Source of the DNA: Deuterostichococcus epilithicus
Lineage: Eukaryota; Chlorophyta; Trebouxiophyceae; Prasiolales; Stichococcaceae
Reading direction: 5' to 3'
Assembly (NCBI GenBank): GCA_033439295.1
Contig: JAVTLE010000018.1
Coordinates: forward strand, 496,001 to 560,000
Length of the DNA: 64,000 nt
Position 1 is the first letter of the stretch. Each line of letters opens with the position of its first letter. The notes below the pieces were generated by a model. The model made no database searches, had not been told where the DNA came from, and saw only the letters and a program-made list of their open reading frames with translations. This document shows positions 1-53,098 of this stretch, in pieces. Both the position numbers and the translations under genes were made by a program.

Positions 1-2420
1 GTCCATGCGGCTTGCTGACGACGCTGCCGGCGCGCCGCAGGCTCGGGCGCGGGAACTGCAGGCGCCGAGCGCGACCCAGCAGCTGGTCTGCCCAAGGTCG
101 GCCACGAGTGGCTCCCGCAGCGATGCATGTGCCCCTGCAAATCCATACACTAAGGCGCACGAACCCTAAACCCTACGCACCTGGACCATGACCAGCGGGT
201 TGGAGGCCTTCATGGAGAACAGGAAGTTGTGGTAGTCCAGGTCGCGGCACATGTCCGCAAACTCGAAGGCGGACTCCACCATGCCGCGGGGGGTGTCGCC
301 GTAAAAGGACAGGATGCGCGCCGACAGGGAGCCGTGGTTGGTGCCGATGCGCATCGCGCGGCCCAGGCGCTTGCACTTCTCCACCAGCGGCGTGAACTTC
401 TGCGGGCAGCAGGGCAGAAGGGCGGGTGCGTGAGGGGGACCCAGCTCGGAGCGTGGGAACAGCCCGCCAGCTTGTGCTTGCAGGGCGTGCGTGGGACTTC
501 AGCAGACTGTGCCCATTTGGGCAAGCACGGCTGCCTTCTCAACCGCCAGCTGCATCCTTGCAGAGGGCGTGCTCCAGTTTTGATGACACATGTGTGCAGG
601 GGGCTGCCGAATAAGGTGCCATGTTCACTCCGTGCCTCCCTCCTCGTGCCTGGCTCCTCAAGACGCTGCGAGGGCGTCCACAAGGTTGAAGCTGATGCGC
701 AGACAATGTGCTTAGATTCACCACAAAACTGAAACTATTTTATTCTATCTACCTCCCGCATGTACTCGCGCTCAGCGACGAAGGCCTTGGGGTCGTCGTA
801 CGTCATCTCCTCGAAGGTCTTGCGGCCGTCTGAAAAGTTCCCGGGGTTGATGCGGATCTTCTCGAAGGCGTCCGCCACCAGGAGCGCCACCTTGGGGTTG
901 AAGTGGATGTCTGCCACCAGCGGGGTGTCGTAGCTGCGGCGGGTCAGCCAAGATTTGGTTGTCACGTTTCTCGCGTGAAAGAGTGACAACGTCTGATGTG
1001 CAGTGAGGAGCCCTTTCTGAGTTGAAATGGATGTCTGCCACCAAGGGGCATCGTGGCTGTGTGCAGGGGTCAGAGAGAAATCGGACGCTGCGGCCTGCTC
1101 TGGCGGGCATTTCCTGCGGACACTTGCGGATGCTGCCAAGCCTATAAAGCGGTCGGCTGCACATTGTGCTCAGCGCCGCTGCGGTCTCACACCGCACGAA
1201 ATCCTGTCCCCTCCCGCCGGGCAGCAGCTCCTTGCAGGCGCCAGTTGCAGCATCCAGGGCGCAGGCGCACTCGAGGGCACCAACAGAGAGCGTCCCCCAG
1301 CGACCGGAGCGCACCCGTCCTGGAAGAGGCGGTCGCGGATCTTGCCGCAGGCCTTGGCCTCCTGCATGCCCTGCACCGTGATGCGCACAATGTCCGCGCC
1401 CACATCCGCGCACCGCTTCACCTGGTGGACACGAAAAAGCTGCTCTCAGGAGGCTGAAGGTGTAGGGTTATGTCCGTGGGGCGGCCCGTCCGCGTGCCTC
1501 TCGGTCCCATCAGGGATGTGCCGGGCAGGCGCAGCTGGGAGAACGGAGTCTGCGCGCCGCACTGCATGCGCTGCCTGTCGCGCAACTTCATTTCGCACGC
1601 AGCCCACGACACGCCGTGCGGTGTCGTGGCGACTGCGACCGCCCGTGGACGGCTGGGCTGTCTCCCTGCTCACTGCACCAGCCGCCCGCTCACCTGGTCG
1701 ACTGTGCCTTCGATGTCACGTGTGTCTGTGGTCGTCATGGTCTGCAGCGCAATTTTGTGCTCGCTGCCGACCTTGACGTTCCCGATCTGCGCAGGCGGCA
1801 ACCTCTCACTCTTCCTGAAAAAGCGCTTAGTGCATCGCACGCAGCTTGCTTTCTCATGATCTCGTGCAGGGGGATATCCGCTGAGGTGGTCCACATATCA
1901 CAGCGTCTGCAGCATACAACCCACGTGAACAGTGCGGGTCGGGCGCCGCCTCGTCTGCCATGTGCTCTCGCAGTATTTGTGGGTGCCCGAGGCAGCGGCA
2001 TCCGCTGTCGGCGACTCCCGCTGGGGCGGCGCTGCCACTGCCTGCATTCGTGGTTCGACAAGACGTATGAGGCGAGGCTGTTCCGTATAAAGTCAGTAGT
2101 AAACGCTGATGCTCCGGTGCGGACAGCGTGTGAGGCTGGGCGCCGTGGGCTACATGGAGCATATTTGCTGTTGCAAAACCTCCGGCCATCAGATGGTTGG
2201 CTGAGAAGTACTTGTCCGGTCTGCCCCAGATGCTGCCTGCGGCTTGATATGCAGGTTGCGCGAAGCATCAAACATGCCTGCTTGCAGGTGTGCATCCCAC
2301 CTGAATTGCAAGCCTGTCTCGCCTCCGCAGGGCCGCAGGGCGTCCCGAGAATCCGAACGAGTCCCTGGCCTTGGGCAGAATGCTGGCCTGCCCGCCACCG
2401 CAGGATGCCGCGCCCTGCAT
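1..2420 (-). CDS. HDS: 4-hydroxy-3-methylbut-2-enyl diphosphate synthase (HDS/IspG), plastid; 5' part
   Basis: This Fe-S enzyme makes HMBPP from MEcPP in the plastid MEP isoprenoid pathway. Exons in transcript order: 2301-2420, 1925-2041, 1786 down to about 1692, about 1421-1315, 933-753, 400-181; the gene continues past base 1. All junctions keep phase. The first exon (ATG at 2420) codes a Ser/Ala/Arg-rich peptide like a transit peptide. The body carries IspG landmarks in order: [94 protein letters not shown] and [11 protein letters not shown]. The C-terminal region with the [4Fe-4S] cysteines lies outside the window. The intron at 934-1314 holds a decayed copy of the next exon's start. Family assignment is near certain; the first exon is inferred. 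Confidence 0.93.
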
Positions 2421-3721: not shown

Positions 3722-3799
3722 CAACGCGAGAACCAAGGCCGAGCAATTTCGACAGGTGGATCACCGGTGGTACCTCTCTAGGAAGGGGTCAGATATAGA

Positions 3800-8400: not shown

Positions 8401-11400
8401 CACGGGTCGCCGCCCCGACAGTCCATCAGGCGCTGCCCTGTCGGCTCGCAGCGCATGTGTGCAGCGCAGCATGCGCGATTCCCGCACCTTCATCTGTCAC
8501 GAAGTCGACGTCCTGGTCCTCGAACACGGTGCCGTCCTGCAGCCGGCCGACCAGGTGCGCCTGCACCCTCGCCCCCTGGTTGGGCTTCTTCCACTCCGAG
8601 GTGTCCGACGATAGCGTCTGCGTGCATGCATGAGACAATCAGCTCGCCACCCGTCCGCATGCCTCTGTGTGGCAGGTCCGGCAGAAACGAATGTCCTGGC
8701 GGTATGCCCCCCGCCCCATGCTCGCGGCTGCAGAGTATGGGTGCAGCAAGGGAAGCCCTGCTCTATGCTGGGCTCGAGCTGTATTCCAGAGCAAATGTGT
8801 GGCAGCATGCGATGACGCACTGCATCAGTCGCTGGTCCTGCTGCGGGTCCGGTCCCTTCACAGCGCAGGCAAGATCTGGGCAAGCACAGCCCGCCTTTCA
8901 GACCACGGCAGCGTCGTTGGGCGCATATCCACCGACTTGCAAGACAGAGCAGCTCCAGCCGCGACACTGACCACATGGAAAATAGGCAGATGCAGGCTTG
9001 CCTTCTTGACCACGGCGCCGTCGTCGGTGACATCTTCAACGGACTTCCAGGACAGCAGCTCCAGGCGCGCCTCCAGATCGGCATCCGCCGCCACATCTGC
9101 CGGCCGCTCCGCGTCAGAAAAGCCGTCTGCGCACACGAGTGAGCAGCCAGACCGGCCGGTCAGCGGGCGCGTCTGTCAGCATGTCTTTCGCTGTGTCATT
9201 TTTGACCACGCTGGTGTGGAGCTCGCAGCAAGGGTGACAAGACTTGACTTGACATGTCAATGGCTTCGGCCTCAACTGCACAGTGGCAAGGCCTTGACAT
9301 TGCGAGCACAGGGGATGCAGCTCTCCCAGACTTGAGCATCGAACAGGCACGCACAGTCGGAACGGACGACGAGATTCGCCGCCTCGCCACGCTTCATCGT
9401 TGGCAGCGCGACGCCGAACGCGCGCAGCGGCCCAGCCTCTGACAGTGGGAACTCCGCGCCGTTTGGCGGCGAGGACGCCACCACAGCATCGCTGCCCTTC
9501 ACTCTAATCTCGTACTTGACTGCGCATGCAGGCGCGCAGGAGGATGAGGTTGGGCGCTTCGCGCACAGGCTACACATGTACAGTCTCTGTACAGATCATC
9601 TATAGCCGCCGTGTGACCTGCCACCAGGTCTCTTCAGGGTCCCCGGCCAGCTGAGACGGTGCAGCACCGCCGTTTGCAGGCCGCCGCAACAACAGCAGGG
9701 ATTGCGCAGCTGGTAGGCAGAGCTGCAGCTGCACCGCGTGCAGGGTGCACATATGTGCAAAGAATCTGGACTCATCGTGCAGGCGCACGGGCAGGTGATG
9801 GTCAAGTGGTGCGTCGGCAGGACTGCTCTGGTGCCGCTGGGTCCATTGACACTCACCCAGGACCTCGTCCCGCGCCTTGGAGCGCTCCCAGCCCTCGCCC
9901 GGCGAGTCAGGCACTGTTGTCTTGATGACGCCTGCGGACACGACGGTCGTGAACCGTCAGCGGCTGCCTGATTGCGCAGCCCTGCATGCCGCGCGCTCAG
10001 TCAGTGGAGGGTGCATGACGCGCCAGCGGCAGGCAAAGCGTGTGGGGCGGTCAGGTGTGCCAATTCAAGGAGTCGGGCGACCTGCCTCCATCGTTTGAGA
10101 TGTCCTTGGAACTCTTCCAGCTGAGCAGCTCGACCTGCGGGTGGCGAGGCACGCACGGGTTTGCATGCCAGCCTGCGCCGCTGCAGCGGTTGGTAATATC
10201 ATGCAATAGCGCAACCCAACAACTTGCAGGTGCCGATCTGCAGAACCACTCACCTCGAAGTGAAGCGTGGCATTCGGTCCGATTTTCGGCGGAGACCCCC
10301 GCTCGCCGTAGGCATACTCCGCCCGGCAGATGAGCAGCGCCTGGAATGTGCACGGTCACACCAGTCAACGGTTCGGGAGGCCGATGACCACTCGGAGCCA
10401 CTGCCACACTGCATGCGAATGTGTTCAGGCCCTGCAGGACAGAGGCTGACTCACCTTTTCCCCCCTTTTGAATGTGGCGACCCCTTTGTCCCAGCCCTTG
10501 ATGACCGAGCCTGAGGGCAAGAAATCATATGCATCACAGGTATGCATCAGGGGTATGGCATGCATCACAGGTATGCATGCATCAGAGGTATGGCATGCAT
10601 CAGAGGTACGGCATGCGTAGGGGCTTTGCCATGCGGTGTCAGAGCGTAAGGACCAACCACGCCGACTACTTCTGCTCTGTGCACATGCAGCTGACAGCAG
10701 CACAGCAATGTTGAGTTGACTGCAGGCAAGGTGCACAAGCACGATCGGAGCTCACCCTGGCCCAGCGTGAACTTGAAGGGGTCGCCGCGGCCGCGGGAGC
10801 TGTCAAACTCGGAGCCGTCCTCCAGCGTGCCGACATAGTGCACTGGGTTGGAGCAACGAGGTGTCAGTGGCTGCCAGGTCTCTCGCAGCCAAGCGGTGTG
10901 GACGGCGCTGCGGATGCCGCGTGTGCTGCTGCATGGCAGCACATGCATGTCGACCCACCTGTGACCTCGTCACCGGCTTCAGGCGTCTCCCAGCCCTCTC
11001 CCGGTGTGATAATATTCTTGATCAGGCCGCCGTCTTTCTGCAGGTTGGAGTTCGGATGCCGCCCCTCAGCAGCAGCAGGTTCTTTGCGACGTGCAATAGC
11101 GATAGCGAAACAGATGCCATGCATGCTGCATCATGAACATCTGCACTCACCGTCAGCTTTTGCTCCTGGCCCACCGCCGGCTCGTCAAATGTGTAGTCCT
11201 CATCGCCCTCTGGCAGTCGGCCGACAGATCGTCAGCAAGTCGATTGTGGAAATGCAATTGCAGTACCGCACACGCCACACAATCAATGATGAAAAGGACA
11301 TACATGACTCCAGTGGCCAAGGCGGTCGTGCTCTGGCGTCCAACAGCGTGGGACATGCATCCAGCACACCGACAGCAAACGGGCCGACCATGAAATGCAA

Positions 11401-21222: not shown

Positions 21223-23984
21223 TTACAGCCCCACGTAGTCCGTCCCACGCGGCGTGTCCTTCCAGTGCGGCGGCCTGCGCATTGACCAGAAGCGGTGTCG
21301 TCAGATCCATCCGGGTGCTTGTGGCTGCCTCCTAAGCCGGTGCCGTCAACCCGATGTGTTCAGCTGCTGCGACGCTTGCGCGGTCAACCGGCATGCATGG
21401 CAGGATAAAGAGGCGAGTGGAAGTAGCGAGATTCAATGATTGAAAAGCAAGGGAGACGGTGCCGCCGCACCAGGTCTCGGCGACGGAGGGGCGCTGCGCC
21501 ACGACGCCAATGTATTTGGCGATGTGCGGGAAGCTGACGAAGTCTGCGCCGAAGCGCTGCGCCGACAGCAGGCTGGGGGCTGCATGCAGCACGGCAGAGA
21601 GATGGTGAGCAGGACAGGGCTGCCTGGTCAAGGGAAGAAACGGAGAGGGGGACTCCGAGCGGGAGGCTGCGTGAGTCCTGGCGAGGACAGTGATAAGCTG
21701 ACAAGGCCCGTGCTGCAGCGCTGCGCCAGCGGCCGGCCGGGGGCTTGGGGCTGCTCGCTGTAGGGCAGCAAAGGGAGGTGGGTTCGAATTTGCAGGCTGG
21801 GCATGGCGTCGGAGGTTTTGTAGGCACCCGAATAGCTGCTCCGGATCTGCCAAAGACAGGGGCCCAAAGAGTATCGAAGCCGCGCAGAGGGCTGCAGAGC
21901 AGATGTCCCGCAGCCATGCATGCCCTGCCGAGGAGCAGTGCCGTGCAGGCGCCGGTTTTTCATCTTCGGGCGGCTCAGTCGCCCGGTGCACTCGAGACGC
22001 ACGACCTCGAGTCCACAGCCCGCATCCTGAAGCAGTCGCACAACCGTCCCTCACCTGCGTAGGCGTCCGTCAGCGTGAAGGCGGGCCCCGCCAGGTATTG
22101 CGTCTTGGACAGGTACTGCTCCCAGTAGCCGAGCTCCACGCGCAGCTCCTCTACTTTTGCCGCAAACTCCGCCTCGTCTGATGCAGGCAAAAAGCAAAGC
22201 TGTGAGCGTGTCGGCCTGTGATTTTTGTGCTGTCATGACGTGAGGGTGCCTGGCAGGTGCTGCTGCCGTAGACTGCGTGCTGCTTGTGCAGTGAGGGTGC
22301 AGGCGCAATCTGGTGCATGGAAGCAGGGGTTAGGACAGACTGCTCGTCGTTCGCACAGCGTTCTAGAGGCCGATGCTGCACATCGCCGGCATGGCTCAGG
22401 CCCATACATCAGGGTGGTGCTGGCAGCGCGGCAGACTGGCCGGCAAGGCTCATGGACTTCCAGACACACAGCACGGGCCCTCCGTCACAGCAATGAAGAG
22501 AGGTTGAGGCGCACCCAGCGTCTTGTCGTTCCGCTTTGCCATCATTTTCAGCCTGAAGGGCGCGGAGATCTTTGTTGCTAGCACCTGTGGCATGCACATA
22601 GGGTTGTGTCGCCTGGAGCAAGCAGCTGTGCTTTTAACGTCAAAGCACAGTCGCTGCGTAACAGGGCTGACACAGGTTCAATGCACACAGTGGGCATGCA
22701 GTCAGGAGAAAAGACTCGCACCTCTGCCTCTGCCAGGCGCTGCCACACCTGCAAACTCGGCATGCGCACATCGTACAGCGGAAAAACCAAATCAGCAGCA
22801 GCTTGGGGCAGTTCAGCGATAGCCTGTGGGTGCACGCACCAATGGCTCGGGCAAGGATTAGGACTCCCAGGCCTCGAGGCACGTGCCGGGGAGCGATGGA
22901 GTGGCCGCCAGGCGACGGAAACCCCAAGCAGCAGCACGTGCGAGGCAGCAGAAGGCACCCGTCCACGGGCAGAGGAGAGGCAGAGGGTGGGAGGTCGAGC
23001 ACCATCAGGAAGGGCCTACTGACCAGAGCGCGGGCGTCGGGTGCGCTGCGGGCTGGCAGCAGCTGGTTGCCGCTTCCCTCGTAGGTCTCCTCCAGGTAGA
23101 TGCAGGCCGCCAGCGACTCGTTGACAACCACCTCGCCGTCCTTCAGCGTGGGCACCTGGCCCCTGCGAGTCGTGTGGCGGCAGGGGCGGGTCGGGCGAGG
23201 CGAGGTCATGCGCGGTGAGGAGCACGCTGTGACGCGCGTCGCAGGAGAGGTTTCGTGCAGCGTGGCCGAGCCGGACGAGACGTGCCACAGACAGCGCATG
23301 ACGAAGCTCATGCGTGCGCGTCTTCACCAAGGGTTGACTTTGACTTCAAGCTGGCAGTCGCATTGTGCCGGCGCCTCACCGGGGGTTCAGCGCCAGGACC
23401 TCCTCGCTTTTGTGCTCGCCTGCAGGGTGGCGAGGAAGTCAGTACAGTTATCGCGGATGCAGTATCGCTACTCACAGAGCTGATTTGCGATGACTGCCGT
23501 CGCAGGGAATCGGTGCCCGCTCCTGCACATGGTCCTGAGTGCAACCGCCGATGCGATGCAGGCTTGCAGGGAAGCTTCTTCCGCACTGCTATCAACAACA
23601 ACTGGTCAGATGTGGTAGCAAATGACACAGAAGATTCCGTCGCTGCCATCTGAGGCCGTCTACAATGCAGATGAACGACGAGCTGGCGCATCATGCCGCA
23701 TGCGAGCAGGATGGTAAAACGATCAGCACGATAGCTCTCGAATTGCAAGTTTGATACATTAAGAAACCAGATCCGCGTTGAGATATCCCTGCATTGAAGG
23801 AAAGGGTCTCCTGCGCGTGCATGCAGGGGAGCTGGCCACGGATGGCTCTGGTGGCACCTTTGGAAAACTCCAGTAGGCGGCTTTCGAAGTCGAGCTGCTT
23901 CTCTTTCAGCGTGATGAGGACACGCCAGGCCGGCCCCGACCCGCTGCCCCAGTAGATCACGCGAGTCGAGTTTGCAGCTGCCAT
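21223..23984 (-). CDS. Glutathione S-transferase
   Basis: Soluble GST with an N-terminal thioredoxin fold and a C-terminal helical domain; conjugates glutathione to electrophiles or acts as a reductase. Exons: 23984-23858, 23419-23380, 23162-23024, 22823-22749, 22584-22515, 22177-22055, 21579-21471, 21274-21223. All phases agree, giving about 243 residues. The N-terminus reads RVIYWGSGSGPAWRVLI, with Ser rather than Cys at the usual active-site position. Then come LALNPRGQVPTLKDGEVVV, NESLAACIYLEE (the ES pair that binds the glutathione gamma-glutamyl group), ELGYWEQYL and AGPAFTLTDAYA (N-capping box). It ends PPHWKDTPRGTDYVGL. The class cannot be fixed by eye. The ATG at 23984 leaves a minimal leader, so it is probably cytosolic. 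Confidence 0.9.
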
Positions 23985-31327: not shown

Positions 31328-34300
31328 CTAGCGGAGCGCCTGCTCGTGCTCGGACCAGCAGGCGTGCACGTCCTTCACCGGACGCAGCGCCTTCCACACG
31401 GCGCTGTTGCACTTGAAGCCCGAGCCAAAGCCCACCTGCGTGTGGAGATGATGGCAACAGTGACGCCCTGGGTGCCGTCCGGCCCTGAGTGCCGTCCGGC
31501 CGGTCATGATGGCGAACAAAGCGCAGCAGACGTGTAAACAGCAGTCCTGAAAAGCAGGCAGGAGGGGCAGCTGCGGCTGGCGGATGGCAAACAGGACAGG
31601 GTCCGACAGTCAGCAGGTGGGATGCAGCCAGGATGCGGCAGCGACAGGCGGCCCAGATACAGGTGTCGCCAGGAGGACAACCGTACCTGCCACACGGTGT
31701 CGCCACGGCGGATGCCCTGGCATGATTCGATGAAGCCCAGCGAGTACCACACCGTGCTGCTGCTGGTGTTGCCTGTGGTGCACATGGCAGAGACAACAGC
31801 GTCACCGGGCAGAGCTCAAACTCAAGCGACAGCTGGGACCCAGGCAGCACCATTACCGCATGGTACCATATTGTCGGATGCGCACGTCAGGACGAGGAGC
31901 GGCGTGTCCTTGCAGCAGCGGCATGGATCCAGAGGAGCAATCAGACCCCAGACAGACAAGAGGCGACCTCGTGGCGCCGGGGCTGCATCAGGAATCCGCA
32001 TGCGACAGGGGACCAGGCATACAGCGTAGGTTGTGCAAGGGGAACATTCCAAAACTGCTCACCGTAGTGGCACAGCGTCTGCGCCGCCGGGGCGCGTTGC
32101 CGCTCATCCAGCCTCAGCTGCGCGCCCAGGCCCTCGATGACGCCGCGCCCGCCTGCGGAGTCGACGAGCCATATGCATTTGTTACAGTGCTCGAGGGGCT
32201 CATCGACGATGCGCACAAGCTGCCGCAGAGACAGCGGCTTGAAGGCAAGCCTTGTTTGGCAAGATGAGGCGCAGCATGAGGCTGGCAGCTTCCATCGGGG
32301 AGGGGAGCATGCAGTATCAGACAGGCGCACAGCCCGAACCAAGAGGCAGGACGCGGAGAAATCCCCAGGCAGTAAACAAGGCGGCGGCGTTTCGCGTGCC
32401 ACCAAGACCGCACCTGCATGCAGGCAGAAGTGGTCGAAGGCGCGGCGGAAGTCGGGGATGTAGGGCTTGAGGCCGGGGCGCACTCGCCGCGCCAGCCAGT
32501 TGAGCACGAACAGCGCCTTCTCGCCCGCAGGCAGCACGTGGCGCCCCATGCGCGTCATGTTGGCCTGCGCCGCACAGGGTCGGTTTGTGAAGTAATTTGC
32601 TTCCGGCAGCTTGAAAGCGCATCCCCGCCCGCCGGCAGCGGGTAATTCCCAAACTGCCCCATGTGCATCATGTTGGCCTGTACGCGAACGAGTGGGGCTA
32701 AGCAGACGTTTGACTGGCGTCTGGTGAATCAACTGCGCAATGCCGGCTCCAGCCGCCGCAGCTCGTGCGGCACAGGCGCACACCGCACCTCACCCGCTCG
32801 AGGCATGCCCCTCATCTCGATGTGATGCGGAGCGTGACACGGCTGCCTCAGTGACCCCACATCAAGCCAGCTTCCCATGGCCTCAGGCATGCCTCAGCCC
32901 CAGCAGGGTTGCAAGGCAGCAGCAGGCCCGCTCACGAGCATCCAACCCTTCGGCATGTGCATGGAAAACAGAAGATACATGACTGTTCGGCACCTGTAGC
33001 GCCCGGCCGGCGACGTGCACGAGGTTGCGGTCCAGCGCCACGCCTGTGGTCCCCTTCTCGTCCGCGTGCTGGTACACGCACCTGCAGGGGGGTGCAAGGC
33101 AAGGCGAGGATGCGTCAGATGCTGGAGGGACAGGTTGGGGGATTTCTGCTGCCGCGTTGCTCACGGATATGCCCAGAAACGAGCCCTGTTCTGCGATATG
33201 CAGAGGACATTACAGGGAGGCAAGACCAACCACAGCATGAGGCCCATGCAGCCAAGGCACGTGCAAGGCTGGACTGGGCACCTGTACGCGGTCTCGTCAG
33301 CGCCCAGGTGGACGCGCGTGACGTGCTGCAGCTGGTACTTTGCGCGCCGGCGGGCGGCGCGCTTGTTGGTCAGCACAATCGCCGCGCATCCCATGCGGAA
33401 CAGCGTGTTGGGGATGAGCATGCTGCGCTCGTCGCCCGCGTACCAGTTGAGCGTGATGTTCTCGGTGGAGACGACCAGCGCCACCGCATTGCGCTCCACC
33501 TGCACCCCGAAAGCAGAGATGGTGGTGGTTTGTTGTTGAAAAGTGCGAAGGTGCAGTGTGCGTTGGCGACCCCAGCAACATGTGCGTCCCCGAATACGCA
33601 GAGGTGTTCCTCGGTGACTGCTGCCGGTGCCAGCCCAATTCCTTGACCCACAACCAAAGCACGCTAGCCGCCCCCGCTGGCCCAACTGGTTTTGGTTCAC
33701 GGCCGTCTGACAGGGCCACATCAGGAATGGATGCCGGAACACAGAAACACTGTCGCCAGCAAGCGGGGTTGCCGCCGCCGGCCCCACCTGCAGCAGCTTG
33801 TCCGCCAGGCCGATGGCGATGACGCCGGCAGAGCAGCCCATGCCGCCAAGGTTGTAGGACACAATGTCGGAGCGCATCTTGAAGTGATTGACCAGCATGG
33901 CCGACAGGCTGGGCGTCGGGCAGAAGAGCGAGCAGTTGACCACCAGGATGTCGATGTCGCGCGGCTTCAGGCCTGCGCCACATGGGAGGGCGGGCGGAGC
34001 TGAAAGCACGCGGCAGAACCATATGGGGCATGCGCCATGCAGTGGTGCGAACGTGCACATGGCGTTCATAGATGCCCAGACACAGCTGTACAAGTGGCTG
34101 CTCCTGCCAACAGGGACTGCTGCTCTCGCTGCCATGGTTTTGTAGCTGGCAGGCGTCCGAAATCAGGTTTGACAAACACGCACGGGCCTCTGGGCAGCCG
34201 TCCGAGCTGCAGGACCAGGGAAATCAGTCTCAAGGACGGCACCTGTGCGCTGCAGAGCGCGCTCCACCGCCTCAAACATCACCTGCTCCGCCTCCTCCCT

Positions 34301-36406
34301 TGCTGCCTGCAACGCGCCAGCTGGAACGTCTCAACCCAGCCACATATGCTGAGCGTATTCCCACCGAAGATTGCGTCACCTGGTCGATTGGCCTGTGCAT
34401 CCAGTCGCGCTAGGGCTGGCAGCGGGCGGTTCTGACACCCACGACCTGGCGGCGCCGCCGGGGTGCATTCCAATGACAGGGATGCTGCATGTGAAGAGTT
34501 GATGCATGCGGCGATGCAGGCCCCATGCTCGTGCAGATGCCAAAGTGTGCCCACGTGGTGGCGCTGGCAGGGAGTTCGACTTGCACCATCGCAGAGAGGC
34601 ACCGGAGTCTCCGCGCCTGCATGGTGATGATGGGCTTGGGCAGGATGTGCAGCGCCGGGGGGAGGCAGGCGTGGCCGTCGCCCAGGCCGCTGCGAGAACT
34701 GATGCGCTCCTGGAAGTCCAGGCTCTCCGGGCTGAAGCGCTGCAGGGGGGTGGGGAGGCACAAGGGTTTGGAGCTGTCTTGCCGCAAGTTCACTGACCTT
34801 GCTTTGCGTTGACGCAGAAGATATTATCGAGCACAATGAGGCCATCACGAGGCTGGCAGCGCGCTACAGCGGCTTTGCGAGGACCGGGAGACGAGAGGCG
34901 AGACAGCACGACATGTGGATGCGGTCACCTCGCACGCGATGGAGCCCTGCATGAAGCGCTTGAGGGAGACCTTCAGCTTGGGGTCGCAGCACCAGCAGTC
35001 AAAGTCCAGCAGGTACACAGGGCGCCGCCGGCGGGGTCCCCACCGCCACACCGCCAGCGCCAGGGCCACCGCCGCCGCAAGCGCCGGCACCTGCGGCGTG
35101 GGACCCGAGAACGTCGGCATGGCTGCCTGGTAGTTCGGCATGCAGTCGAGCTGTGCAGGCGGTCAGAACACGAGGGTCCAAAACACAAAACTGCTGCGCG
35201 GGCGGGACGTGCAGGTGGCCCCAGCATCAGGAGGGGCTGGGCCCTGATGACAGCACCGGCACCCGTGCACACCCTGTGCTGGTTACTTCATAATCAGTGC
35301 CGGGACCCAGCCATGCCAGCGCCACAGCACGGCGGATGCGGCAACAAGGGCGGACGTGGCAACAGGGGCTGGCGACATGCGCTGTTTTGTTTGCACGCCG
35401 TCTACATGGTCGTCAGTGAGACGCGTCAGGCCCTGCCATGCTGCATTCCTCGCACTTCCGCTTGCTGCCGCCTCAGCATGAAAGCAGTGCCACGTCACAT
35501 GAGGACTGCCCTCGTGTGTCGTGGCAGACGCACCGCTTGCAGCTCCAGTCGGTGGGTCCAGGCTGCCTCCCAAGCGTGCTGCAGCTTCCCTGACCGATGA
35601 GCAGCCTGCAAGCCAGGCATGCACAGGAAATGTAGCAGCTGCTGATACCTGTGACATGGCAGCTTCAGTGCTGCAGGACGACACAGACCTGTTAGGCCTC
35701 GGTGCAGCTTGCATGGTGGCCACCTTGTGGAAGGCAAGCAGCGGGACGCAAGAGTGCTATGTATGAATGGCTGATGGACTGCAACACACGGCAGCCTTGC
35801 CTGGAGCCACACAGACGCGCTGCCAACGGCCTTCAGCAGCACCAGCGCAAGCGTGAACTGCAGCAGGCGCCCTGCCATCCGCAGCCGCTGCGCCAGGAGC
35901 TCAGAGGGGAACTCTGCACAGAGTGCACAGCAGACAGTCGTAACCTGGCCTGACCTCAAACAGCCTGGTTGGCATGCGCGCTGCGACACACATGTCGAGG
36001 CTGTGCAGTCCCTGTTGCACCCACCCGGCCGGTTGTCAGACTTTGGCGCCGGCTTGCCGGCAGGCTGCGGCGCGTCAGCTGTCTGGCTGCCGTTTGTGGG
36101 CCGGTGGCGGCTGACGACCCCGTTCTGGTGCGGCGCGTTCTGCTGCGCGCAACCATTTCCGCCCCTGTGGCTGCCATCGCGCGCCCCATTGGCATGGCCG
36201 TTGGCATGGCCTTCTGCCAAACCATTCTTGGCGACGCTGCCATTCAGGCCGTGCTCTACGCCTCCGTTCGTGGCTGACTCCCCGTAGCTGGAGGCCTTGC
36301 CGCTGGCGCCATCGACGCGGCTGCGGGTGTAGTACCCATTGGAGTAGGTGCCCTGCTGTTTTATCGCAGGCGTGGGCGCGCCGCTCTTCGGCATCGGCAC
36401 CGTCAT
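31328..36406 (-). CDS. KCS: 3-ketoacyl-CoA synthase (very-long-chain fatty acid elongase, FAE1/KCS type)
   Basis: Condensing enzyme of very-long-chain fatty acid elongation: acyl-CoA plus malonyl-CoA, in the ER. Exons: 36406-36025, 35913-35801, 35150-34929, 34739-34617, 34306-34243, 33972-33788, 33499-33282, 33081-32994, 32564-32414, 32152-32063, 31772-31687, 31435-31328. About 610 residues. It has [35 protein letters not shown], the active-site Cys in [18 protein letters not shown], the catalytic His in [14 protein letters not shown], and Asn in [11 protein letters not shown], so the Cys-His-Asn triad is complete. It ends [12 protein letters not shown] plus a short tail. Hydrophobic segments sit at [15 protein letters not shown] and [15 protein letters not shown]. 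The first exon adds about 127 hydrophilic residues rich in Asn, Gly, His and Ser. Two introns start with GC (35800, 34616). Confidence 0.95.
32625..32690 (-). repeat. Exon echo beside KCS exon 32414-32564
   Basis: Copies the 5' end of the next exon together with its acceptor: CAG|GCCAACATGATGCACATG here against CAG|GCCAACATGACGCGCATG in the exon, followed by CTGCCGGCGGG versus CTGCCTGCGGG. The units are about 115 bp apart. It reads [18 protein letters not shown] against [15 protein letters not shown], so the start is still open and could be spliced. Confidence 0.7.
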
Positions 36407-40915: not shown

Positions 40916-40918
<3 letters not shown>

Positions 40919-41151
40919 CAACGCTGCTGTGCATCATGACAAATGCAGCTCAAACCAGCGAGCCTTCCTTGACCTTCTCTTTGGTCACCTCATCTCCTTC
41001 TGTCCCTTTACGCATGTCGTTCTGTCTCCGGATACGACGCGATTGGTTCCTTGCTCGACCTCAATTGGCAGCGGCGGCGCCCTGCTTACAGCGCTGCACA
41101 CCATATCTGCGTCTCTCATCAGCCCATGTAGCGAAGGTAGTGTCACACGAC

Positions 41152-44100
41152 CGGCTGCGCCGCCTCCGCCGACTTCACCGCTTGCTCCACCAGCCGTTCG
41201 GCGGATTCTCCGTGCTTTTTTGCCTCCCGCCACGCCGCGTCAGTCTCGGCCTGCGTGGCACGAGAGCCAAAGTCGCACTGTGCAGGCGGACCGGGCCGCA
41301 GGCTCGTGAGCGCAGCAGCTGCTGTGCTTGACAGTGGCAAGGCTTGCCGCGCACTGCAAATTGTCATTGCTTCCAGTAGTAGATGTCGCAAGTGAAACGA
41401 CATCATTTGCATGCTGATGTATGAGTAGGCGGACTCAATACGTTCTGGTTATGCTATGCATCATCGTCGGCTTTAGTGCTCAAAGAGTATGCTGGCGCAC
41501 CGTGGCAGCGTCAGCCTCCGCCTTGGCTCGCTTCCGGCGCTGCATGAGGTCCTCCGCCGCCGCCTCCGCCGCCACCGCCTGTGCGTGCAGCGCTTCCTTC
41601 TCCGCCTGCGCCGCAAGTAATCGGAGGGTTAACAGCGACTATCAAAAGAGCACAGCGTACGCTCTGTCTTCAAACTGCGCGCAGGCCGCCAGCTGCTGCG
41701 GCATCCTGCTTCCTCTCTGCCTGTGCCCAAGGGAACGGCGTGGCATCCCGGTGACACCGAGTGGCGGAAAGCCGCACGGCGTGCGGTCTCCAGCTGTCAC
41801 ACATACAGCTTGCTCCTCAAAACGCTGCTCGACAAACGCCTGTGCGGGATGCAGCGTCTCCTATGTAACTGGGAAGGCCAGCGCATGCATGGCTCCCACC
41901 TAGTCGCTCAGCTACCTGTGCGACAAGCAAGCACAGGGTATAGGACGCCGTGCCGCTTCCAGTGTCCAGCAGCCGCCGATGACACATCTGGCGCTGTTCC
42001 GCTCTCTGATGCACCAGTCCTGCTCAGTGCCTTTGAAACGCATTTGCTGACCTGATGCCCTGACGTGCCGCCCTGGATTAGTAGCTGACTTGCAAGGTCA
42101 CATGAGCAGTGGGTGTATCAGAGACGGCGCACCTGCACCTCTGCAGCTACTCGTACGCACACGCGCCAGCCCACATGTTACTCGGCAGCGGCCATTACTG
42201 ACATATTTTCTTACGTTCAGCTCTTGTGCGCGAGCAGCTGCTCGGGGGTGCACGCCAGGTCGCCTTTGCGGTGGCGCAGCACCCAAAATCAGCCTATGCA
42301 AGGTGGTTGCATGGCCAACTTTTACAGCTTACACCCTCCGAAACCTGCAAGAGACGCGCCTGCAGCTTGAGCAGCTGCTCGTGGGTGCGCGTCAGGTGGC
42401 CCTTGCGGCGCAGCACCTCCTCCCGCTGCGCTACCAGCTTCGCCTCCAGCTGCGGCGGCGATAGCGAAGTGGGGGTCAGCGCATCACCAAAAATGCGGAA
42501 TTCCGGAAATGTCGGACGAGTCACTCGCGGACCCAGCCGCACAGCTGATGCATTTTCGCGACGACCAGCAATTGTACACTGCCCTTCAACACCGCGAGAA
42601 TCGAGCCGCGGTTCGAAGGCGTCCGCGTTCGTGCCCTCAGGCTTCCAGCCGTCGTGATCAGTCATGTACACAGGGGTAGTGCTTGCTCGTATTCCTCTGA
42701 GCCTATGCCCAGCCTTTCCAGGCTGCGCCCAACGAGCAGCCAGTGCACTTGCAGTAAGTCAGCCGATGTAATACCTGCGCCAGCGCGGCGCGGTCGGCCT
42801 CCGCCTCGGCTTTCAGGCGCTCCGCCTCGGCGACGGTCTGGTTGGTGTCAGTGGTGGCGGCCTGCAGACGGTCGCGGGCCGTCGCCAGCGCAGCGCGCGT
42901 GCGCTGCAGCTCGGCCTCCAGCTCGTTGGCCTCCTTCATGCGCGCCTGCGCCACCTCCGCCTGAAGTGAGAAATGTGTGTAGCTGGCTTAGAGACATCTC
43001 GAACGACAGGCTGCCTTTCAATGAATACTCCACTGCAGCTCGCCGGCCTCCTTCATGCGCGCCTGGGCCGCCTCTGCCTGAAAACGGAAGAAAACTGGTG
43101 TCATCGGCTGGAAGCCTCCTGTGAACGTTGGCCTTGTAAGACACATCGCCACAGCTCTATCGCTGTCTCCACCACGCATGCCGCCTTGGCCGCTTGGAAG
43201 TGCCGCTGCTCGACATGTGCCTAACCCACGACCGGACCTGGGACGGCTGCGCCCCATGGACATATTCCTAACAGAATCGGGTTTCAAAAGTGTAGCAGGC
43301 TACAGTCGGACCAATCGGTCGCATGCCGGACATTGGTGTACATGGCTGGGCAAACTGCATGCAGCGGCAGATGTCTCAACCGCCAGCAGCTGCGCCCGCA
43401 TGCTCAACCGCCCCCTTGCATCAGGAGTCAATTGTTGACGAGCGCATATCACAATCTTGCGAGTTGGCCACACAAGAACCCATCCCTGGGGTGATATGAA
43501 AAGCGCCATGGAGTGTTGCGACAAGCTTGAGGCACTACTGGTCTGGTAGACCGGCATTGCCGGCAGCTGCAGGCAGTCGCCCTATGCACACCCGCTGAGG
43601 TTTGTTGCGACATCAGCATGCTCAAGTCTTGCTACTGCTTCAGGCGCGCCTGCCAAGCAAGAGGCAGGCCGGTGCCTCTTTCTGGGGGAAGTTCTGCTGC
43701 TCGTAAATTTGCTCTGCAGCGTCCGGTGCGCTCAGAGGCTCTGCGCATCCATGCCACGGCAGCATCATTCGACTCGTCAACATGAGCAGCGCAGCCAGAC
43801 CTCCGGCACAGCGCAAGGCTGGACGCCACTGCATTCCTTGAGGCGCCGGCCACCACCAGCCTCATGAGCCCTGCGGGATAATCACGCTGCTGCAAAGTGG
43901 ACGACCGCCCGCCAAACGTCATTGCGAGTGCGAGATCCAAGGCCAATGCCCTGCACTGCCCTGCACTGCCCCGTCTTGCGCAAGGCAGCCATGTCGGCCC
44001 CTTGCAACCCTCCGAACCCTGGTGCGATGTCAATGATGACCATTACAGCGAAAGGAGGCCTCCACTCCTCCCCGCGCATCTCGGCCGTTTCCACCCCCAG

Positions 44101-47100
44101 CCCTGCCGGTCCAGGGACATCTTCCAGCGTCATTCATGCTATGCAGTCATTCTTTAGAATTGCAAACGGTTGTTCCTCGCTTGCATCCCACTGGAAGCAG
44201 CAGCACCTACCTTCTCGCGCTCGGTGGCCATGCATAACCTCCGCCTGTAGCCCTGGTCCCGTGATTGCTTCTGGCCCTATCGATTGTAAGCATTGCAACT
44301 CTCTGGTCAATCGTGACACTGGAAGTAGCAGTACCAAATAGGCACCTTCTCGCGCACGGCCGCCATCTCCGACTCCAGCGCGCGACGCGCCGCCTCGAAC
44401 TTGCGCTTGGCGGCGACGGCGGCCTCGCGGGTGCCGCGCGCCGCCAGCAGCGCTGACTCCAGCTGTGCCCGCAGGTCCTCCACCACCTTCTCCGCGGCTT
44501 CCAGCTCGCCGCGCTTGGCCTCGAACGCCGCCTGCGCAGCCGGAGCGTGAGCATGCAGCCTCAGCAGTGATGAAGCAAAAACCATTGCTGGAACCAGATG
44601 CGTGTGCAGTGCGTGCGGCCCACATAGATGAGGTACCCCAGATACCATGTTGCGGCTTCCAGGTCGCCGTGCTTGGCATCCAACGCAGCCTGCGCATGTG
44701 TCGCGCCACAGCTTAGTGTCAGACATGGCGAGAGAAATGAAATTTGTTCCTGCCAAGGGCCCTTTTCATCAGGACGCGTCTTCTCTGCGGCTGAATGTGT
44801 GCTGCGCTTGGCCTCAGAAGGGCTGCACAACAATACAGAATTGCGCAATCGTACACCTTTCAGAATGTATGGCCAGTTATGCAATCGCAGGAATGCTGCT
44901 TGAGAGCCCGAGTGCATGTCCAGGCATGCGCAACATGCCCGCCAGGGCATGCAGAGTCTGCTGGCGCTGCAAGGTCAGCCTACACGCCACACAGATTTGA
45001 CGTCGAGGCTGTTGCGACTAGCGCATGTGTACACGCTGCAAGCAACACCTTTGCAGCCTCGCTCACGGTCCTGGCTGCAGGCACCAAGAAGGACGACTCG
45101 CCTGCGCAGCCTGCTCGTCCAGCGTCTGATGTCAATCATGTCTGCTGGACCCAGCTGCTCGCTGGCGACTCCTCGCGATGCACTGCGGCCATAGCCGGCA
45201 GCTCCGTCTCCCCACCCGCATTCGCAACAACCTCATCCCTAACCCTAAAAGTTCGTGGGTTGTTGGTAACGTTTATCGACTTGCAACAATCAAACTCCAT
45301 CCCAGTCGAGTGCCTGACCTGGGCCTGCTCTGCCTCGCCACGCACGGCGGCCATGGCCAGCTGCTCCGCCTCAGCCGCACGCTCCGCCTCAGCCTCCAGC
45401 CCTTTCACCTGCGCGCGCGGCAGCCAAATACACATCATATAACAGGTGGCGCATTATGTCATACCAGGCGCGTCTCAGGGCCGTCCCTGCGCTCTGCTGG
45501 TTTGAGCCGCACCGGCGCTTTGCGTGCATGCAGCGCGGTGCTGGCGGGGCATGTTGCGCAGAGGGACAGGGGTGTAGATAGAGATAGCGCAAGCGCATCA
45601 GGGCGTGTGCATCGACACAGCTGGCAGGGACTGTAGAGCCAGCTCCTGCGGCACTGTCATAATGTTCACAATGCCAAAGCGACTTGTCCCAGGGGGCAAG
45701 CACGTGGACGAGCTGCGCCTCCAGGCCACCAGAGGGAGCAGCAGCGGCGAGGTTGATGCAGCATAAGCACAACCGATGCTTGCACAGCGCGAAGCAGCCG
45801 TCTGCAGCATCAAACTGCTGACTCGGAAGCAAGAACTCGGCAAGTGAAACCGCGGGACTCACGCGGGCGAGCTGCGCCTCCAAGGCCACCAGGTGCTGCT
45901 GCAGCAGCTTCGCCTCCTCCACTGGCCCCGCCAGCTTTCTGGCCTGCGCGGTGTGGGGAGCTTGGCGTCTATGCAAACACTACAGTGTCACGTGCAAGAA
46001 GCTGCACTGTTTGGATAACCGCATTTCAAGCGGCAGGGGAACGGCAGGGCCCCTTATCAATCTACTTGTCAGGATTGGACCGAACAAAAGCGCCCCACGC
46101 TGCGGCCCTGCCGCTCAGGCAGCGTGCAGCACGGCGCTACAATGACACTTGGCGTGCAGAACAGGTGCCGACAAGGAGGCTTTCAGATCAGGCCGAGATG
46201 AGGCGCATGCCCCGGCTGCAACATGCGGCAGTTGCACGTACAGGGGATCGCTGTACAGCACATGTGCGTGGTTCGGCAGGCTGCGATGAGTTTTGACGCG
46301 TGTGGACGATGTATGTATGTTCGGTGCCTTGGGCAGAAGCTTCGAAGAATGTGCAGCTTTGACGAAATCATCACTTTGAGGTCGGCCTCCTTCTGCAGGC
46401 GCGCCAGTTCGCGTTCCTCCTCCGCCAGGCGGCGGGCCTGCGCCGCCTCAGCCGCCTTGACCTCTTCCAGCGCCTTCGACTTCTCGGACAGCGACGCCTG
46501 CAGCTCGTCCTCCTTGACGGATGCGATGCGCTCCTGCGGGCATTTGCAGGGATGCATTCGTATGTTGGGATTCGTCAGGGCCAGCAGGGGCGAGGATGCC
46601 GCCTTGACATCCGCCTCCAGCGCCTTAGCTCGTTCCGCCAGCCGCGCCTGCCGCTCGCCCTCTTGGAGCAAGGTCACGACGGAAGAGGTGCGCTTCTGTG
46701 GTTACTGGAGACAACGGACAGACCCCGGGTGAAGATGCTAGTTGACATTTGAGATGATTCGACCTTCTCGATTCGATCCTGCATAGGGCTCCACTACAGC
46801 TGCAGCCGTCCTCCTTGTTCAGCAGCAGTTTGCACTCCTGCGGGGATTGCGACACATGTGATAACCCGAATGAGGACACCGCGGTAGCAGTGCGGGGGTC
46901 TCAATGAAGTGACATTTCCGATGCAGGTCCATGCAAGGAAGAGGGCAAAAAGCTGCCGTGTTATCATAACCACATGGTTTGATGATGCATGGCATCGCCC
47001 TCATTGCATGGTGCTGTTGCAGTTTTCGCGAACCACTCTGGATGCGCATGCTGTCGAGGAGACCAGCTGACCGTTATGTCATGCCGCGCGCCAGAGCTGC

Positions 47101-50174: not shown

Positions 50175-53098
50175 TTATCGCGCCATAAGCATGCTGCTGG
50201 CCAGCTGTCGGTCTGCTGCTTTCTGGGCCTCCCGCGCCCGCTGCAGCGCCTCCAGCAGCTCCGCGGCGGCGGCGCTTCCGGGCTCGATCTTGAGCACCTC
50301 CCCCAGGTCCTGCTGTGCGCTCTGCGTCGTGGGAACATAATTTCTGGCGTTTGCGCCAGCTTGTCGTGTCCACGTGCCCTGCCTGCCTGACGGCTGTGAC
50401 GACCTACTGTGCAGTGCCTCACCTGCACTCGGAGCCGCCACGCGGGTGCATGCGCTGTTGCCTGAAATTGACGATCCCAGGCACAGCACGGGACTAAGAA
50501 CCCACCACGAGTTCCAATGGAATAATGGGACAACGTACGCAATGCTTTTCACTGCAGATACCCACGAATCTGCACGGCAGCTCCTGGCCCCCAGGAGCGT
50601 TTTGGGCGCAGCAGCAGCGCTCTAGGTCTGGCTGTGTGGCGTGCTGCAGCAGCACCGCAGGTTTGCCAGCCACACCGTGAAACGTCCCTGTTGAAATGCC
50701 AGACCACGCTGCAGCTGCCGACCTGCAGCTCGTGGCGTCCCATGTGCGCCCTCGAGCGCCGCAGCAGCGCCCTGACGCAGCGCGGCTCCAGCGCTAGTGC
50801 CCGGCCGCAAAGCGCCGCCGCGGTGCCGTACTGGCAGCGCGCCATCGCCACGGCGGCGATGTTGAGCAGCACCGCCACGCGGTTGGTGTCCACCTCCGCC
50901 TGCATGCGCTTGTAGGGTTTAGGGGTCTGGTGGGGCCAGTCATGCTTGGTGTGCCACGGACATGAGGCCGCCCCCGCCTCAGACGGCACCGTCTGCAACG
51001 ATGTGCAACGTCCGAAGCTGGTGTGGCACACAAGGTATCGATCGCAGCTCCAATATCGACATCCTGCCACACGGCTGTGTGGCGACCACTGCCGTGAGGT
51101 CCACCCCGCTTGGGCGAGTGGATGGAACCAGCAGCGTGCCGCCAGGAGTGGCGGCACTGGGGACTGCTTACCCACAGCAGGATGGCAATCATCCAAAGCC
51201 CACTTTCATACTCCCCAGCAGGGTGCTCTGGTGTTTCGCAAACTAGGAACTGGAAGTGGAAGTGGAACTGCAAACGCACACGCGCCTGCTCCGCCGCCGA
51301 CACGCCGCGGACATAGTCCACAATAGCGAGCGCGCGCTCGTAGTGATGCAGCGCTCCGTCTAGATCCCTCGCCCTGTACTTTTCGTTCCCATGTCGCCGC
51401 TCCTCCAGCTGCGAGACATGAGGATAGCAACAGATGTTTCGCTAGACGATTGTCGTGAGTTGCATGTAGAGATTGACAGGTGAACCAGTGCAGCGCATTG
51501 TCCGGGTCCTCGCCCTGTACTTCTCATTGCCCTGCAGGCTGCCGCTGCTTCTTCAGCTGCGCATCATGCACCATAGAGTGTGAGTATATTTCTACCGCGT
51601 GCTCCGGTGATCGGTGTTTGCAGGTTGAAAGGTGAACATTCGCCCATGGATCGCGCGGTCAGCTCAGGCTTAGAGATGTCGATGCACGGTTTGGCTGGCG
51701 GTTTCGGTGCGGCAGCGAAACCACATGCTGCTGGTGGATCACCTGTCAGCGCCAAGGTGTGGTTGCCGCACCACAGGCCGGTGGCATGGCAGGGCAAAGC
51801 ATGATGCGTGACTGACTTTCGGGATGTGCAGTGCCAGCGACATGAGAAAGACGTGGCTCACATGCTCGTTCAGCGCGCCGACCAGCTGGTCGATCGGTAG
51901 CCGCACAGTCTGTTCTGCTTCCACCTTCCGCTGTGCCTCGGCATCCCGCGCCGTCTGCGCCTGGGAAGGCAGGCGGTTCGATCAGATCAATGAGACGGGT
52001 CTTCCATTCAATTCAGCGCCAGGCGCTGCCGCCGTACCCGCCTGCATGCAGGCGATGCAGGTCAGAGCAGCGCTGCTCCCACATATCGAACCCAGATGTA
52101 CGGCTGCACCTCATGCCAGACCCTCCATCACAAGCCTTCGATCGTCGGTTCATTTCAGGTCGTCAAGCAAAGGGCAACCACCTGCAAATTGATGCTGAGG
52201 TTGCGGTCCAGTTCTGCTGCGGTGATGCTCCCCTCGTCGATCATGCGCTTCGCCTCGCCGAGCATCGCCAGCACCTGTGGAGCAGATGCATGGTGCTGAT
52301 CGGCATTGTTGACTGCTCGCCTGGCGCAGCAACATGCTGGTGCCTGCGAGGCACAGTGCATACGTCTGAGAGGCTCCTCGGTGGCCAACGCCTCAAACCG
52401 AGCGATGCACACGCCTTGAGAAAGCCAAGCACGATCAATGCCAGTGCTTCAGCTATGTTGTATTTAGTCGGTTTGCCTGCGGATTCGTGGACCAGTCGGC
52501 AAACTCTCCAGACGGGTTGTTGGCGAAGGTGCTGATGACGCGCCGCAGCGCGGGGATGGCCAGGAACTCTGCGATGCACCGTTTCGACTCGCGCCCCGAG
52601 TTGAGCACCTGCGGACGAGGAGACTGAGATGAACTACACTCATGCTAACAAGGCGCTGACTTGCTCTTGAGATGCCAACCCTGCAGCGGCTGAGCTCCAA
52701 CGCTGCGGGGCGTGCCCAGACGTGCACACACGCATGCGCCGTACCCTTGCCAAAGCTGTTGTGGCCCTATCTGCTGGTGTATCAAAAATCATTCTGACGA
52801 CTCACCGTGGCACGAAATTCCCGGTTCAGCTGCTTGTCCCGGGCCCGGTGGAACCGTTTTGCCTCCTTCCGCTGATGCGCCTCAACAGCCGCCTTGTTTT
52901 GCGGCTGCTGCAGGAAGGCCTTGAAGCTCGCCTCCTGCTCGTAAAAGCATGCATGAATAAAAATCACTAATTGATTCTTCCTAATTAAATTGTCTGCTGA
53001 TGCAAGGAAGATGTTGGTGGCGTGACTGGCAATATCAGATCTGTTTTGCGCACCATGTCGCTCATGCCCCCGGACCCCATGCCCACGGCACCATCCAT
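50175..53098 (-). CDS. TPR-domain protein (co-chaperone-like)
   Basis: Complete small TPR protein, about 310 residues. Exons: 53098-53054, 52934-52806, 52608-52477, 52274-52182, 51960-51862, 51408-51280, 50899-50723, about 50310-50175; phases all zero. The start exon reads MDGAVGMGSGGMSDM. It is followed by a basic helical segment (KAFLQQPQNKAAVEAH, RKEAKRFHRARDKQLNREFR), CIAEFLAIPALRRVISTF, then a STNPQVLAMLGEAKRMIDEG segment resembling the DP/STI1-type motif of Hsp70/Hsp90 co-chaperones. The C-terminal half has three TPR units: RRHGNEKYRARDLDGALHHY, RVAVLLNIAAVAMARCQYG, and RALALEPRCVRALLRRSRAH with LGEVLKIEPGSAAAAELL. The intron at 52476 uses GC. A chaperone-adaptor role is inferred from TPR plus DP-like pairing; the N-terminal 80 residues are unfamiliar. 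Confidence 0.85.
51485..51634 (-). repeat. Exon echo of TPR exon 51280-51408 plus its flank
   Basis: Copies about 51333-51483. Shared: CTCGCCCTGTACTTCTCATT versus CTCGCCCTGTACTTTTCGTT, GCCGCTGCTTCTTCAGCTGCG versus GCCGCTCCTCCAGCTGCG, and the downstream GATTGACAGGTGAAC versus GTTGAAAGGTGAAC. This is the longest clear echo in the coiled-coil/TPR cluster and is a true tandem duplication of about 150 bp covering exon start and intron. Confidence 0.8.

What the first reader, a model, noticed from the sequence alone, without database searches (positions are those of the whole stretch)
893..51634. Recurrent 'exon echoes': introns carry diverged direct copies of neighbouring exon ends
In at least five unrelated genes (HDS, FKBP, KCS, coiled-coil 1, TPR) an intron holds a 45-150 bp direct copy of part of an adjacent exon, usually 110-170 bp from the original and often including the splice junction. 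I count about a dozen. They range from clearly recognisable (roughly 85 percent) to faint. This suggests a genome-wide process of short local tandem duplication that either builds introns or seeds alternative exons.
Basis: partly seen in the sequence, partly recalled or inferred. Interest (0 to 1): 0.85.

Follow-up and report, generated by a model that had tools for sequence, protein, structure and literature searches.

The report
Exon-end copies stranded in algal introns
In this green-alga-like genome about a tenth of the introns examined carry a worn copy of the end of a neighbouring exon; the copies are real, far commoner than chance, appear to have lengthened existing introns without changing the protein, and show no sign of working as alternative exons.

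Summary
Confirmed. In 224 kb (window plus 160 kb; five contigs) 54 local direct pairs join an exon to nearby intron, against 3-9 in each of four control bands. An intron matches its flanking exon (score >=20) in 36 of 634 comparisons, against 3 of 3385 for distant exons and 0 of 634 on the opposite strand. 45 of 457 predicted introns carry an echo.

In the 52 strict pairs aligned copies are 26-98 nt and 65-93% identical; 37 offsets lie in 90-170 nt, none in 40-89. Echo introns are longer by about one offset (mean 398 vs 241 nt). Echoes decay like neutral DNA. Five echo regions searched are single-locus.

Best reading: duplications at exon-intron junctions, tolerated because splicing keeps the exon-side site, leaving a decaying copy that lengthens the intron. 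Intron creation and alternative exons are not supported. Unexplained: plain tandem duplication predicts copied spacers, seen in 9 of 46, and exon-intron pairs are about tenfold commoner, relative to intron-internal ones, than random duplication predicts.

The parts
880..947 (-). HDS (GcpE) exon end, exon copy of pair 1
1006..1073 (-). echo of pair 1 in intron 934-1314, acceptor side, offset 126, identity 0.76
   Evidence: region single-locus in the genome
9000..9069 (-). FKBP exon end, exon copy of pair 2
8893..8963 (-). echo of pair 2 in intron 8618-9001, donor side, offset 106, identity 0.75
21531..21581 (-). GST exon end, exon copy of pair 3
21695..21745 (-). echo of pair 3 in intron 21580-22054, acceptor side, offset 164, identity 0.76; spacer similarity p=0.02
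32503..32567 (-). KCS exon end, exon copy of pair 4; this copy is the one present in the relative's protein P0001
32608..32680 (-). echo of pair 4 in intron 32565-32993, acceptor side, offset 113, identity 0.69
35043..35125 (-). KCS exon copy of pair 5 (faint)
35300..35384 (-). echo of pair 5, offset 259, identity 0.66; the predicted intron 35151-35800 misses a KCS exon
42369..42417 (-). coiled-coil gene 1 exon copy of pair 6
42232..42283 (-). echo of pair 6 in intron 42141-42334, donor side, offset 134, identity 0.85
   Evidence: single-locus
42916..42965 (-). coiled-coil gene 1 exon copy of pair 7 (outside the strict set)
43033..43082 (-). echo of pair 7, offset 117, 88% identical; partly called an exon by the gene finder
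44494..44538 (-). coiled-coil gene 1 exon copy of pair 8; 44487-44522 also pairs with a second, older echo
44652..44696 (-). first echo of pair 8 in intron 44532-45101, acceptor side, offset 158, identity 0.89
44780..44815 (-). second echo in the same intron, offset 293, identity 0.75 (serial array)
45333..45403 (-). coiled-coil gene 1 exon copy of pair 9
45171..45240 (-). echo of pair 9 in intron 45126-45318, donor side, offset 163, identity 0.75
46498..46544 (-). coiled-coil gene 1 exon copy of pair 10 (faint; could be a protein repeat)
46800..46848 (-). echo of pair 10 in intron 46696-47347, offset 304, identity 0.76
50725..50773 (-). TPR gene exon copy of pair 11
50577..50623 (-). echo of pair 11 in intron 50322-50722, donor side, offset 150, identity 0.76
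51347..51420 (-). TPR gene exon copy of pair 12
51489..51568 (-). echo of pair 12 in intron 51409-51861, acceptor side, offset 148, identity 0.69; spacer similarity p=0.04
56931..57013 (-). coiled-coil gene 2 exon copy of pair 13 (faint)
57054..57136 (-). echo of pair 13 in intron 57003-57392, acceptor side, offset 123, identity 0.65; telomere-like motif at 57019-57046 in the spacer
31133..31296 (-). doubtful pair 14 (31243-31296 / 31133-31185, score 19): the exon predicted here lies outside the KCS coding region and may not be one

Best explanation
The echoes are local direct duplications formed at exon-intron junctions. Each event added about one offset (mostly 90-170 nt) and left two copies of an exon end. 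Splicing goes on using the exon-side site, so the protein is unchanged; the other copy is stranded in the intron, which becomes longer, and decays without constraint. Shown: the excess, its restriction to the adjacent exon and to direct orientation, its position beside that exon, the longer introns, the neutral-looking decay, the single-locus nature of the five regions searched, and for one gene the exon copy in a relative's protein. Inferred: that the events come from repair of staggered breaks, by fill-in of overhangs (which duplicates the exon end) plus non-copied filler (the spacer). Not resolved: why exon ends are so favoured, why no offset is below 90, why young copies are scarce.
For: Flanking exon 36 of 634 against 3 of 3385, 0 of 634 and 0 of 1902 in controls; direct 69 against inverted 3 and 8/5/6 further away; exon-intron 54 against 4/9/4/3. 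46 of 51 echoes lie in the half of the intron next to their own exon. Echo introns (42, <=650 nt) average 398 nt against 241 nt (375 introns), and 250 nt after subtracting the offset. Neutral decay: codon positions 183/885, 172/878, 229/872; gaps not divisible by three in 33 of 52, nonsynonymous 319 to synonymous 108; identity level along the copy, no clustering of mismatches, drift from G/C to A/T. Serial echoes at steps of 112-152 nt in five introns. KCS of a relative uses the exon copy. Small tandem duplications from fill-in at staggered breaks are an established process (PMC8355091, abstract and introduction read).
Against: A plain duplicated unit should carry its intronic part, yet the spacer has a recognisable partner in 9 of 46 pairs (1 of 8 with identity >=0.84), where simulations give 61-92% in the latter class (91-97%). 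In serial arrays spacers resemble each other in 2 of 5. Random duplication predicts an exon-intron to intron-intron ratio of 0.26-0.34, observed 54 to 17. With events spread evenly over time about half or more of the detected pairs should have identity >=0.84; 8 of 46 do. Exon bounds rest on my own gene finder.
Confidence: 0.55

Rival explanations
1. Plain tandem duplication of a unit spanning the junction (exon end plus adjoining intron), with nothing special about the spacer, which merely diverged faster.
For: Some pairs show it: spacer similarity p<=0.05 in 9 of 46; C1 19493 is a triplicate with the spacer included; the pair C1 78382/78480 aligns over 75 of 98 nt; lengthening by one offset; a published boundary-crossing tandem duplication exists (PMC4974935).
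Against: Simulated plain tandems keep a recognisable spacer far more often at every indel rate tried. From observed and simulated fractions I estimate that a quarter to about a third of the pairs can be of this kind.
Confidence: 0.25
2. Old tandem duplications whose exon part is kept similar by gene conversion from the exon, while spacers have diverged beyond recognition.
For: Would explain at once the unlike spacers, the exon bias and the scarcity of young copies.
Against: Mismatches are not clustered into tracts (mean shuffle p 0.49 over 50 pairs, 6 at p<=0.05); conversion between 40-90 nt repeats at 75% identity would be unusual (recalled).
Confidence: 0.1
3. The echoes are functional: alternative exons, alternative splice sites or splicing decoys kept by selection.
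For: Copies carry exon sequence and in 20 of 32 cases a splice dinucleotide; the gene finder sometimes calls part of an echo an exon.
Against: Copies are partial; 33 of 52 hold a gap not divisible by three and nonsynonymous changes outnumber synonymous 319 to 108; offsets show no preference for multiples of three, 13/19/20; splice dinucleotides are neither kept nor lost beyond expectation; in KCS the relative's protein shows the exon copy.
Confidence: 0.05
4. Artefact: coding repeats (coiled-coil, CAG runs) or gene-finder errors that split protein repeats into 'exon' and 'intron'.
For: 22 exon-exon pairs exist; five strict window pairs lie in a coiled-coil gene without found relatives.
Against: The excess also appears in a scan that ignores genes and in Pfam-confirmed HDS, FKBP, GST, KCS and TPR genes; most echoes are frameshifted.
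Confidence: 0.05

Closest known systems
Boundary-crossing tandem duplication in the potato RdRp gene (PMC4974935; abstract and results section read)
   Same: A tandem duplication crossing an intron-exon boundary, with two copies of the acceptor and exon start.
   Different: One recent event; the whole unit including its intronic part is copied, and it made a new intron. Here most spacers are not recognisable copies and the pre-existing intron is lengthened.
[quoted passage not shown] described in PMC3443670, passages read)
   Same: Local direct duplication of exon sequence involving splice-like sites; protein can stay unchanged.
   Different: The model makes the intron itself from the duplicated exon, so offset = intron length; found in 2 of 52 here.
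Internal gene duplication and intron creation (Gao and Lynch 2009; recalled, seen here only as a citation)
   Same: Internal duplications of exonic and intronic segments as a common source of gene-structure change.
   Different: From recall that survey concerns larger internal duplications and new introns, not a class of exon-end copies inside introns.
Staggered double-strand breaks in new Daphnia introns (PMC4202315; passages read)
   Same: Direct repeats shared by an intron and an adjacent exon end, read as traces of staggered-break repair; insertion lengthens introns.
   Different: Repeats there are 4-12 bp and lie at the opposite end of a new intron; here 26-98 nt and beside the parent exon in established introns.
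Small tandem duplications from fill-in at break ends (PMC8355091; abstract and introduction read)
   Same: Fill-in of both overhangs before joining duplicates the overhang sequence in direct orientation.
   Different: Products described are mostly under 100 bp and tandem; exon ends are not singled out and long filler is not the rule.
Direct repeats near intron splice sites (PMC11782384; abstract only)
   Same: Direct repeats at exon-intron borders read as traces of insertion and break repair.
   Different: 4-30 bp repeats pairing the two ends of an intron.

Membership tests
[quoted passage not shown]
   2 of 52 within 10 nt, at least one of them at a doubtful predicted intron
[quoted passage not shown]
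   46 of 51 lie in the half next to their own exon
Junction-spanning tandem duplication (as in potato RdRp) | Direct copies, with the intron lengthened by one unit | tested here: met
   direct only; 398 vs 241 nt, 250 after subtracting the offset
Junction-spanning tandem duplication (as in potato RdRp) | The intronic part of the unit is copied too | tested here: inconclusive
   9 of 46 at p<=0.05, fewer than simulated
Alternative or mutually exclusive exon duplication | Reading frame conserved in the copy | tested here: not met
   gaps not divisible by three in 33 of 52; nonsynonymous 319, synonymous 108
Alternative or mutually exclusive exon duplication | Copy is spliced into mRNA | not testable with these tools
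   no RNA of this alga; one relative's protein (KCS) shows the exon copy
Introner elements or other dispersed repeats | Many similar copies at unlinked places | tested here: not met
   five regions match only themselves or their own partner (the tool calls its counts lower bounds); 40 spacers all-against-all show a slight excess over shuffles (19 vs 4 pairs >=12, best 15.5 vs 14.0), partly telomere-like motifs
RNA-templated copy (spliced transcript) | Copy continues into the next exon of the mRNA | tested here: not met
   5 of 47 at p<=0.05, about 2 expected
Staggered-break fill-in duplication | Direct duplication of a break-sized segment | tested here: inconclusive
   direct copies of 26-98 nt fit; break origin itself not testable on decayed copies

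The most novel reading that the evidence does not exclude
Exon ends in this lineage are specific sites at which a repair or copying process repeatedly inserts a 40-90 nt copy of the exon end together with unrelated DNA, with a floor of about 90 nt between the copies set either by the process or by splicing. It has lengthened roughly a tenth of the introns and differs from ordinary tandem duplication, which in the same sequence gives near-contiguous intron-internal repeats with offsets of 47-66 nt.
Probability: 0.35. Interest if true: 0.75.

Novelty: new variant of a known kind. Interest (0 to 1): 0.58.

Why it matters
How introns grow is usually put down to transposons and small indels. Here a countable class of events seems to lengthen introns one step at a time at the junction itself without changing the protein. 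If confirmed in a relative it would let one measure how often duplicated splice sites are tolerated, which of two like sites is used, and how close two may lie before selection removes them (the floor at 90 nt). The exon bias and the uncopied spacer are not accounted for by the models in the papers I saw.

Tried and rejected
An ungapped scan of the window alone showed the direct excess but mixed in AT and CAG repeats; its 1000-1469 band was raised too (7 hits >=20). I replaced it by gapped scans with a complexity filter. My first filter was too strict and dropped good pairs (seen); it was relaxed, after seeing results.

Rows dropped: labels 54 exon-intron pairs by majority label; one search keeps 52 by a stricter rule, so the sets are not identical. 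One search scored 46 of the 52 (six lie more than 25 nt from the exon edge). Spacer all-against-all used 40 of 52 (25-140 nt). Intron lengths used introns <=650 nt. mRNA continuation used 47 of 52.

Rejected: Rogers intron creation, alternative exons, spliced-RNA template, dispersed family, spacer taken from the rest of the exon (2 of 43 at p<=0.05). Telomere-like filler looked promising because two of the most alike pairs (C1 35875/35965 and C1 78382/78480) have telomere-like spacers, but only 3 of 21 motif sites lie in strict echo units, which cover 11.5 of 224 kb; it stays a note. A protein search with the coiled-coil prediction found nothing at E<=1e-10. A paper search for exon duplication remnants gave one paper, not about this.

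Searches behind the statement that I found no report of this class: (open PubMed Central papers only; listings seen, six papers opened in part).

Full report
WHAT WAS EXAMINED. The window is bases 496001-560000 of contig 16 of a 46.8 Mb genome in 21 contigs. Its proteins resemble those of green algae: KCS is 63-64% identical to Trebouxia, Parachlorella and Coccomyxa proteins and FKBP 53% to Apatococcus. I added 160 kb from contigs 1, 3, 5, 11 and 16, 224 kb in all. No annotation is held, so I trained a gene finder on the sequence: 457 introns; exon median 116 nt and intron median 245 nt in the first 194 kb. Pfam confirms the domains of five window genes. The gene finder merges neighbouring genes and misses or adds some small exons, as the KCS comparison shows.

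Matching introns against the exons of their gene, the flanking exon scores >=20 in 36 of 634 comparisons, the exon one step further in 4 of 556, exons five or more segments away in 3 of 3385, the reverse-complemented intron against flanking exons in 0 of 634, shuffled introns in 0 of 1902 (194 kb). A scan that ignores genes agrees: 69 direct self-matches >=20 at 40-400 nt, against 3 inverted and 8, 5 and 6 direct in equal bands further out. At >=18, 54 direct pairs join exon and intron, 17 lie within introns, 22 within exons, 1 between genes; exon-intron counts in the four control bands are 4, 9, 4 and 3. Some exon-exon pairs, and some pairs in the coiled-coil genes, may be protein repeats.

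ANATOMY. Of the 52 strict pairs 20 lie on the donor side and 32 on the acceptor side; aligned length 26-98 nt (median 58.5), identity 0.65-0.93 (median 0.75); 37 offsets lie in 90-170, none in 40-89; they fall in 45 introns. In 32 of 46 examined the alignment crosses the exon edge, by 1 to 41 nt. Between exon and echo lies a spacer, mostly 30-120 nt. Five introns hold two echoes on the same side, 112-152 nt apart.

LENGTH AND DECAY. Introns with an echo average 398 nt (42 introns), others 241 nt (375); subtracting the offset leaves 250 nt. So the event seems to have added the whole offset to an ordinary intron, though longer introns also offer more room for chance pairs. Echoes then decay freely: differences at codon positions 1, 2, 3 are 183/885, 172/878, 229/872; 33 of 52 aligned stretches hold a gap not divisible by three, 3 an in-frame stop, and 319 changed codons alter the amino acid while 108 do not; identity is level along the copy, mismatches are not clustered, transitions equal transversions, 326 each. 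The echo's splice dinucleotide survives in 20 of 32 cases, near the 0.58 expected from an identity of about 0.76 (my arithmetic). In KCS, the protein of a close relative on a 2177-base contig (too short for the unspliced gene, hence taken as a transcript) continues with the exon copy and not the echo (the echo's reading by eye).

WHAT IT IS NOT. Five echo regions searched in the whole genome match only themselves or their own partner. Spacers all-against-all (40) show a slight excess over shuffles, 19 against 4 pairs >=12, with a best score of 15.5 against 14.0; this is too weak for a family. Echoes sit beside their own exon in 46 of 51 and offset equals intron length in 2 of 52, so introns were not created this way. 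Echoes do not run on into the next exon of the mRNA (5 of 47 at p<=0.05).

WHAT REMAINS ODD. If a unit spanning the junction were simply duplicated, the spacer should have a partner beyond the echo. In simulations with six settings of indel rate and size, 61-92% of pairs with identity >=0.84 show it (91-97%); observed are 1 of 8, and 9 of 46 overall. From these fractions I estimate that a quarter to about a third of the pairs can be plain tandems. In serial arrays the two spacers are alike in 2 of 5. Random duplication with loss of exon-internal events predicts exon-intron to intron-intron detections of 0.26-0.34; observed 54 to 17. With ages spread evenly, about half or more of the detected pairs should have identity >=0.84; 8 of 46 do. 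And five intron-internal pairs are near-contiguous with offsets of 47-66, while no exon-intron pair is below 90. These facts point to a process or a filter acting at exon ends. The simulations rest on my choice of rates and on my exon calls.

MECHANISM. I prefer duplications made at junctions in the repair of staggered breaks, with filler between the copies, kept because the exon-side splice site goes on working. The repair part rests on known processes (PMC8355091, PMC4202315), not on a test here. The floor at 90 nt may reflect the need for working splice signals in the spacer or for distance between competing sites; that is inference. Old duplications maintained by gene conversion would explain the oddities too, but the copies show no conversion tracts. 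A closely related genome would decide.

COMPARISON. The nearest published case crosses an intron-exon boundary in a potato gene (PMC4974935) but makes a new intron and copies the whole unit. New Daphnia introns show staggered-break repeats shared with exons, 4-12 bp (PMC4202315). I found no report of a genome-wide class of exon-end copies in introns; the library lacks subscription papers. I rate it a new variant of a known kind.

Noticed in passing
224 kb sampled; 12 introns in the window, e.g. 400-534, 8618-9001, 44532-45101: GC-AG introns are unusually frequent: 60 of 457 predicted introns, 12 in the window. They rest on gene-finder calls; the one in FKBP (8618-9001) joins sensible protein sequence.
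   Followed up: partly
window 161-176, 1459-1469, 27952-27967, 57019-57046 and elsewhere: Short telomere-like motifs lie inside the chromosomes: AACCCTAAACCC occurs 933 times in the genome, chromosome ends included, against 6 for the backwards control. In 224 kb, 21 sites were found (7 unmerged hits in the reversed control), and 10 of 17 intronic ones lie within 20 nt of a predicted exon edge.
   Followed up: partly
window 35151-35800: The gene finder missed a KCS exon here: the relative's protein P0001 has about 23 residues between the flanking exons that can be read on the minus strand near 35530-35630 (by eye). The predicted exons of 35800-38230 also belong to KCS (its start matches P0001).
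   Followed up: no
window 47639-47710 and 47974-48029: Two GC-rich copies, 56 nt and 84% alike, 319 nt apart, rich in GCGCACGCGTGCGC, in a predicted intron of the coiled-coil gene.
   Followed up: no
window 19912-20011: A contiguous 50-nt tandem repeat, 94% alike, an example of the ordinary young tandem class within introns or between genes.
   Followed up: no
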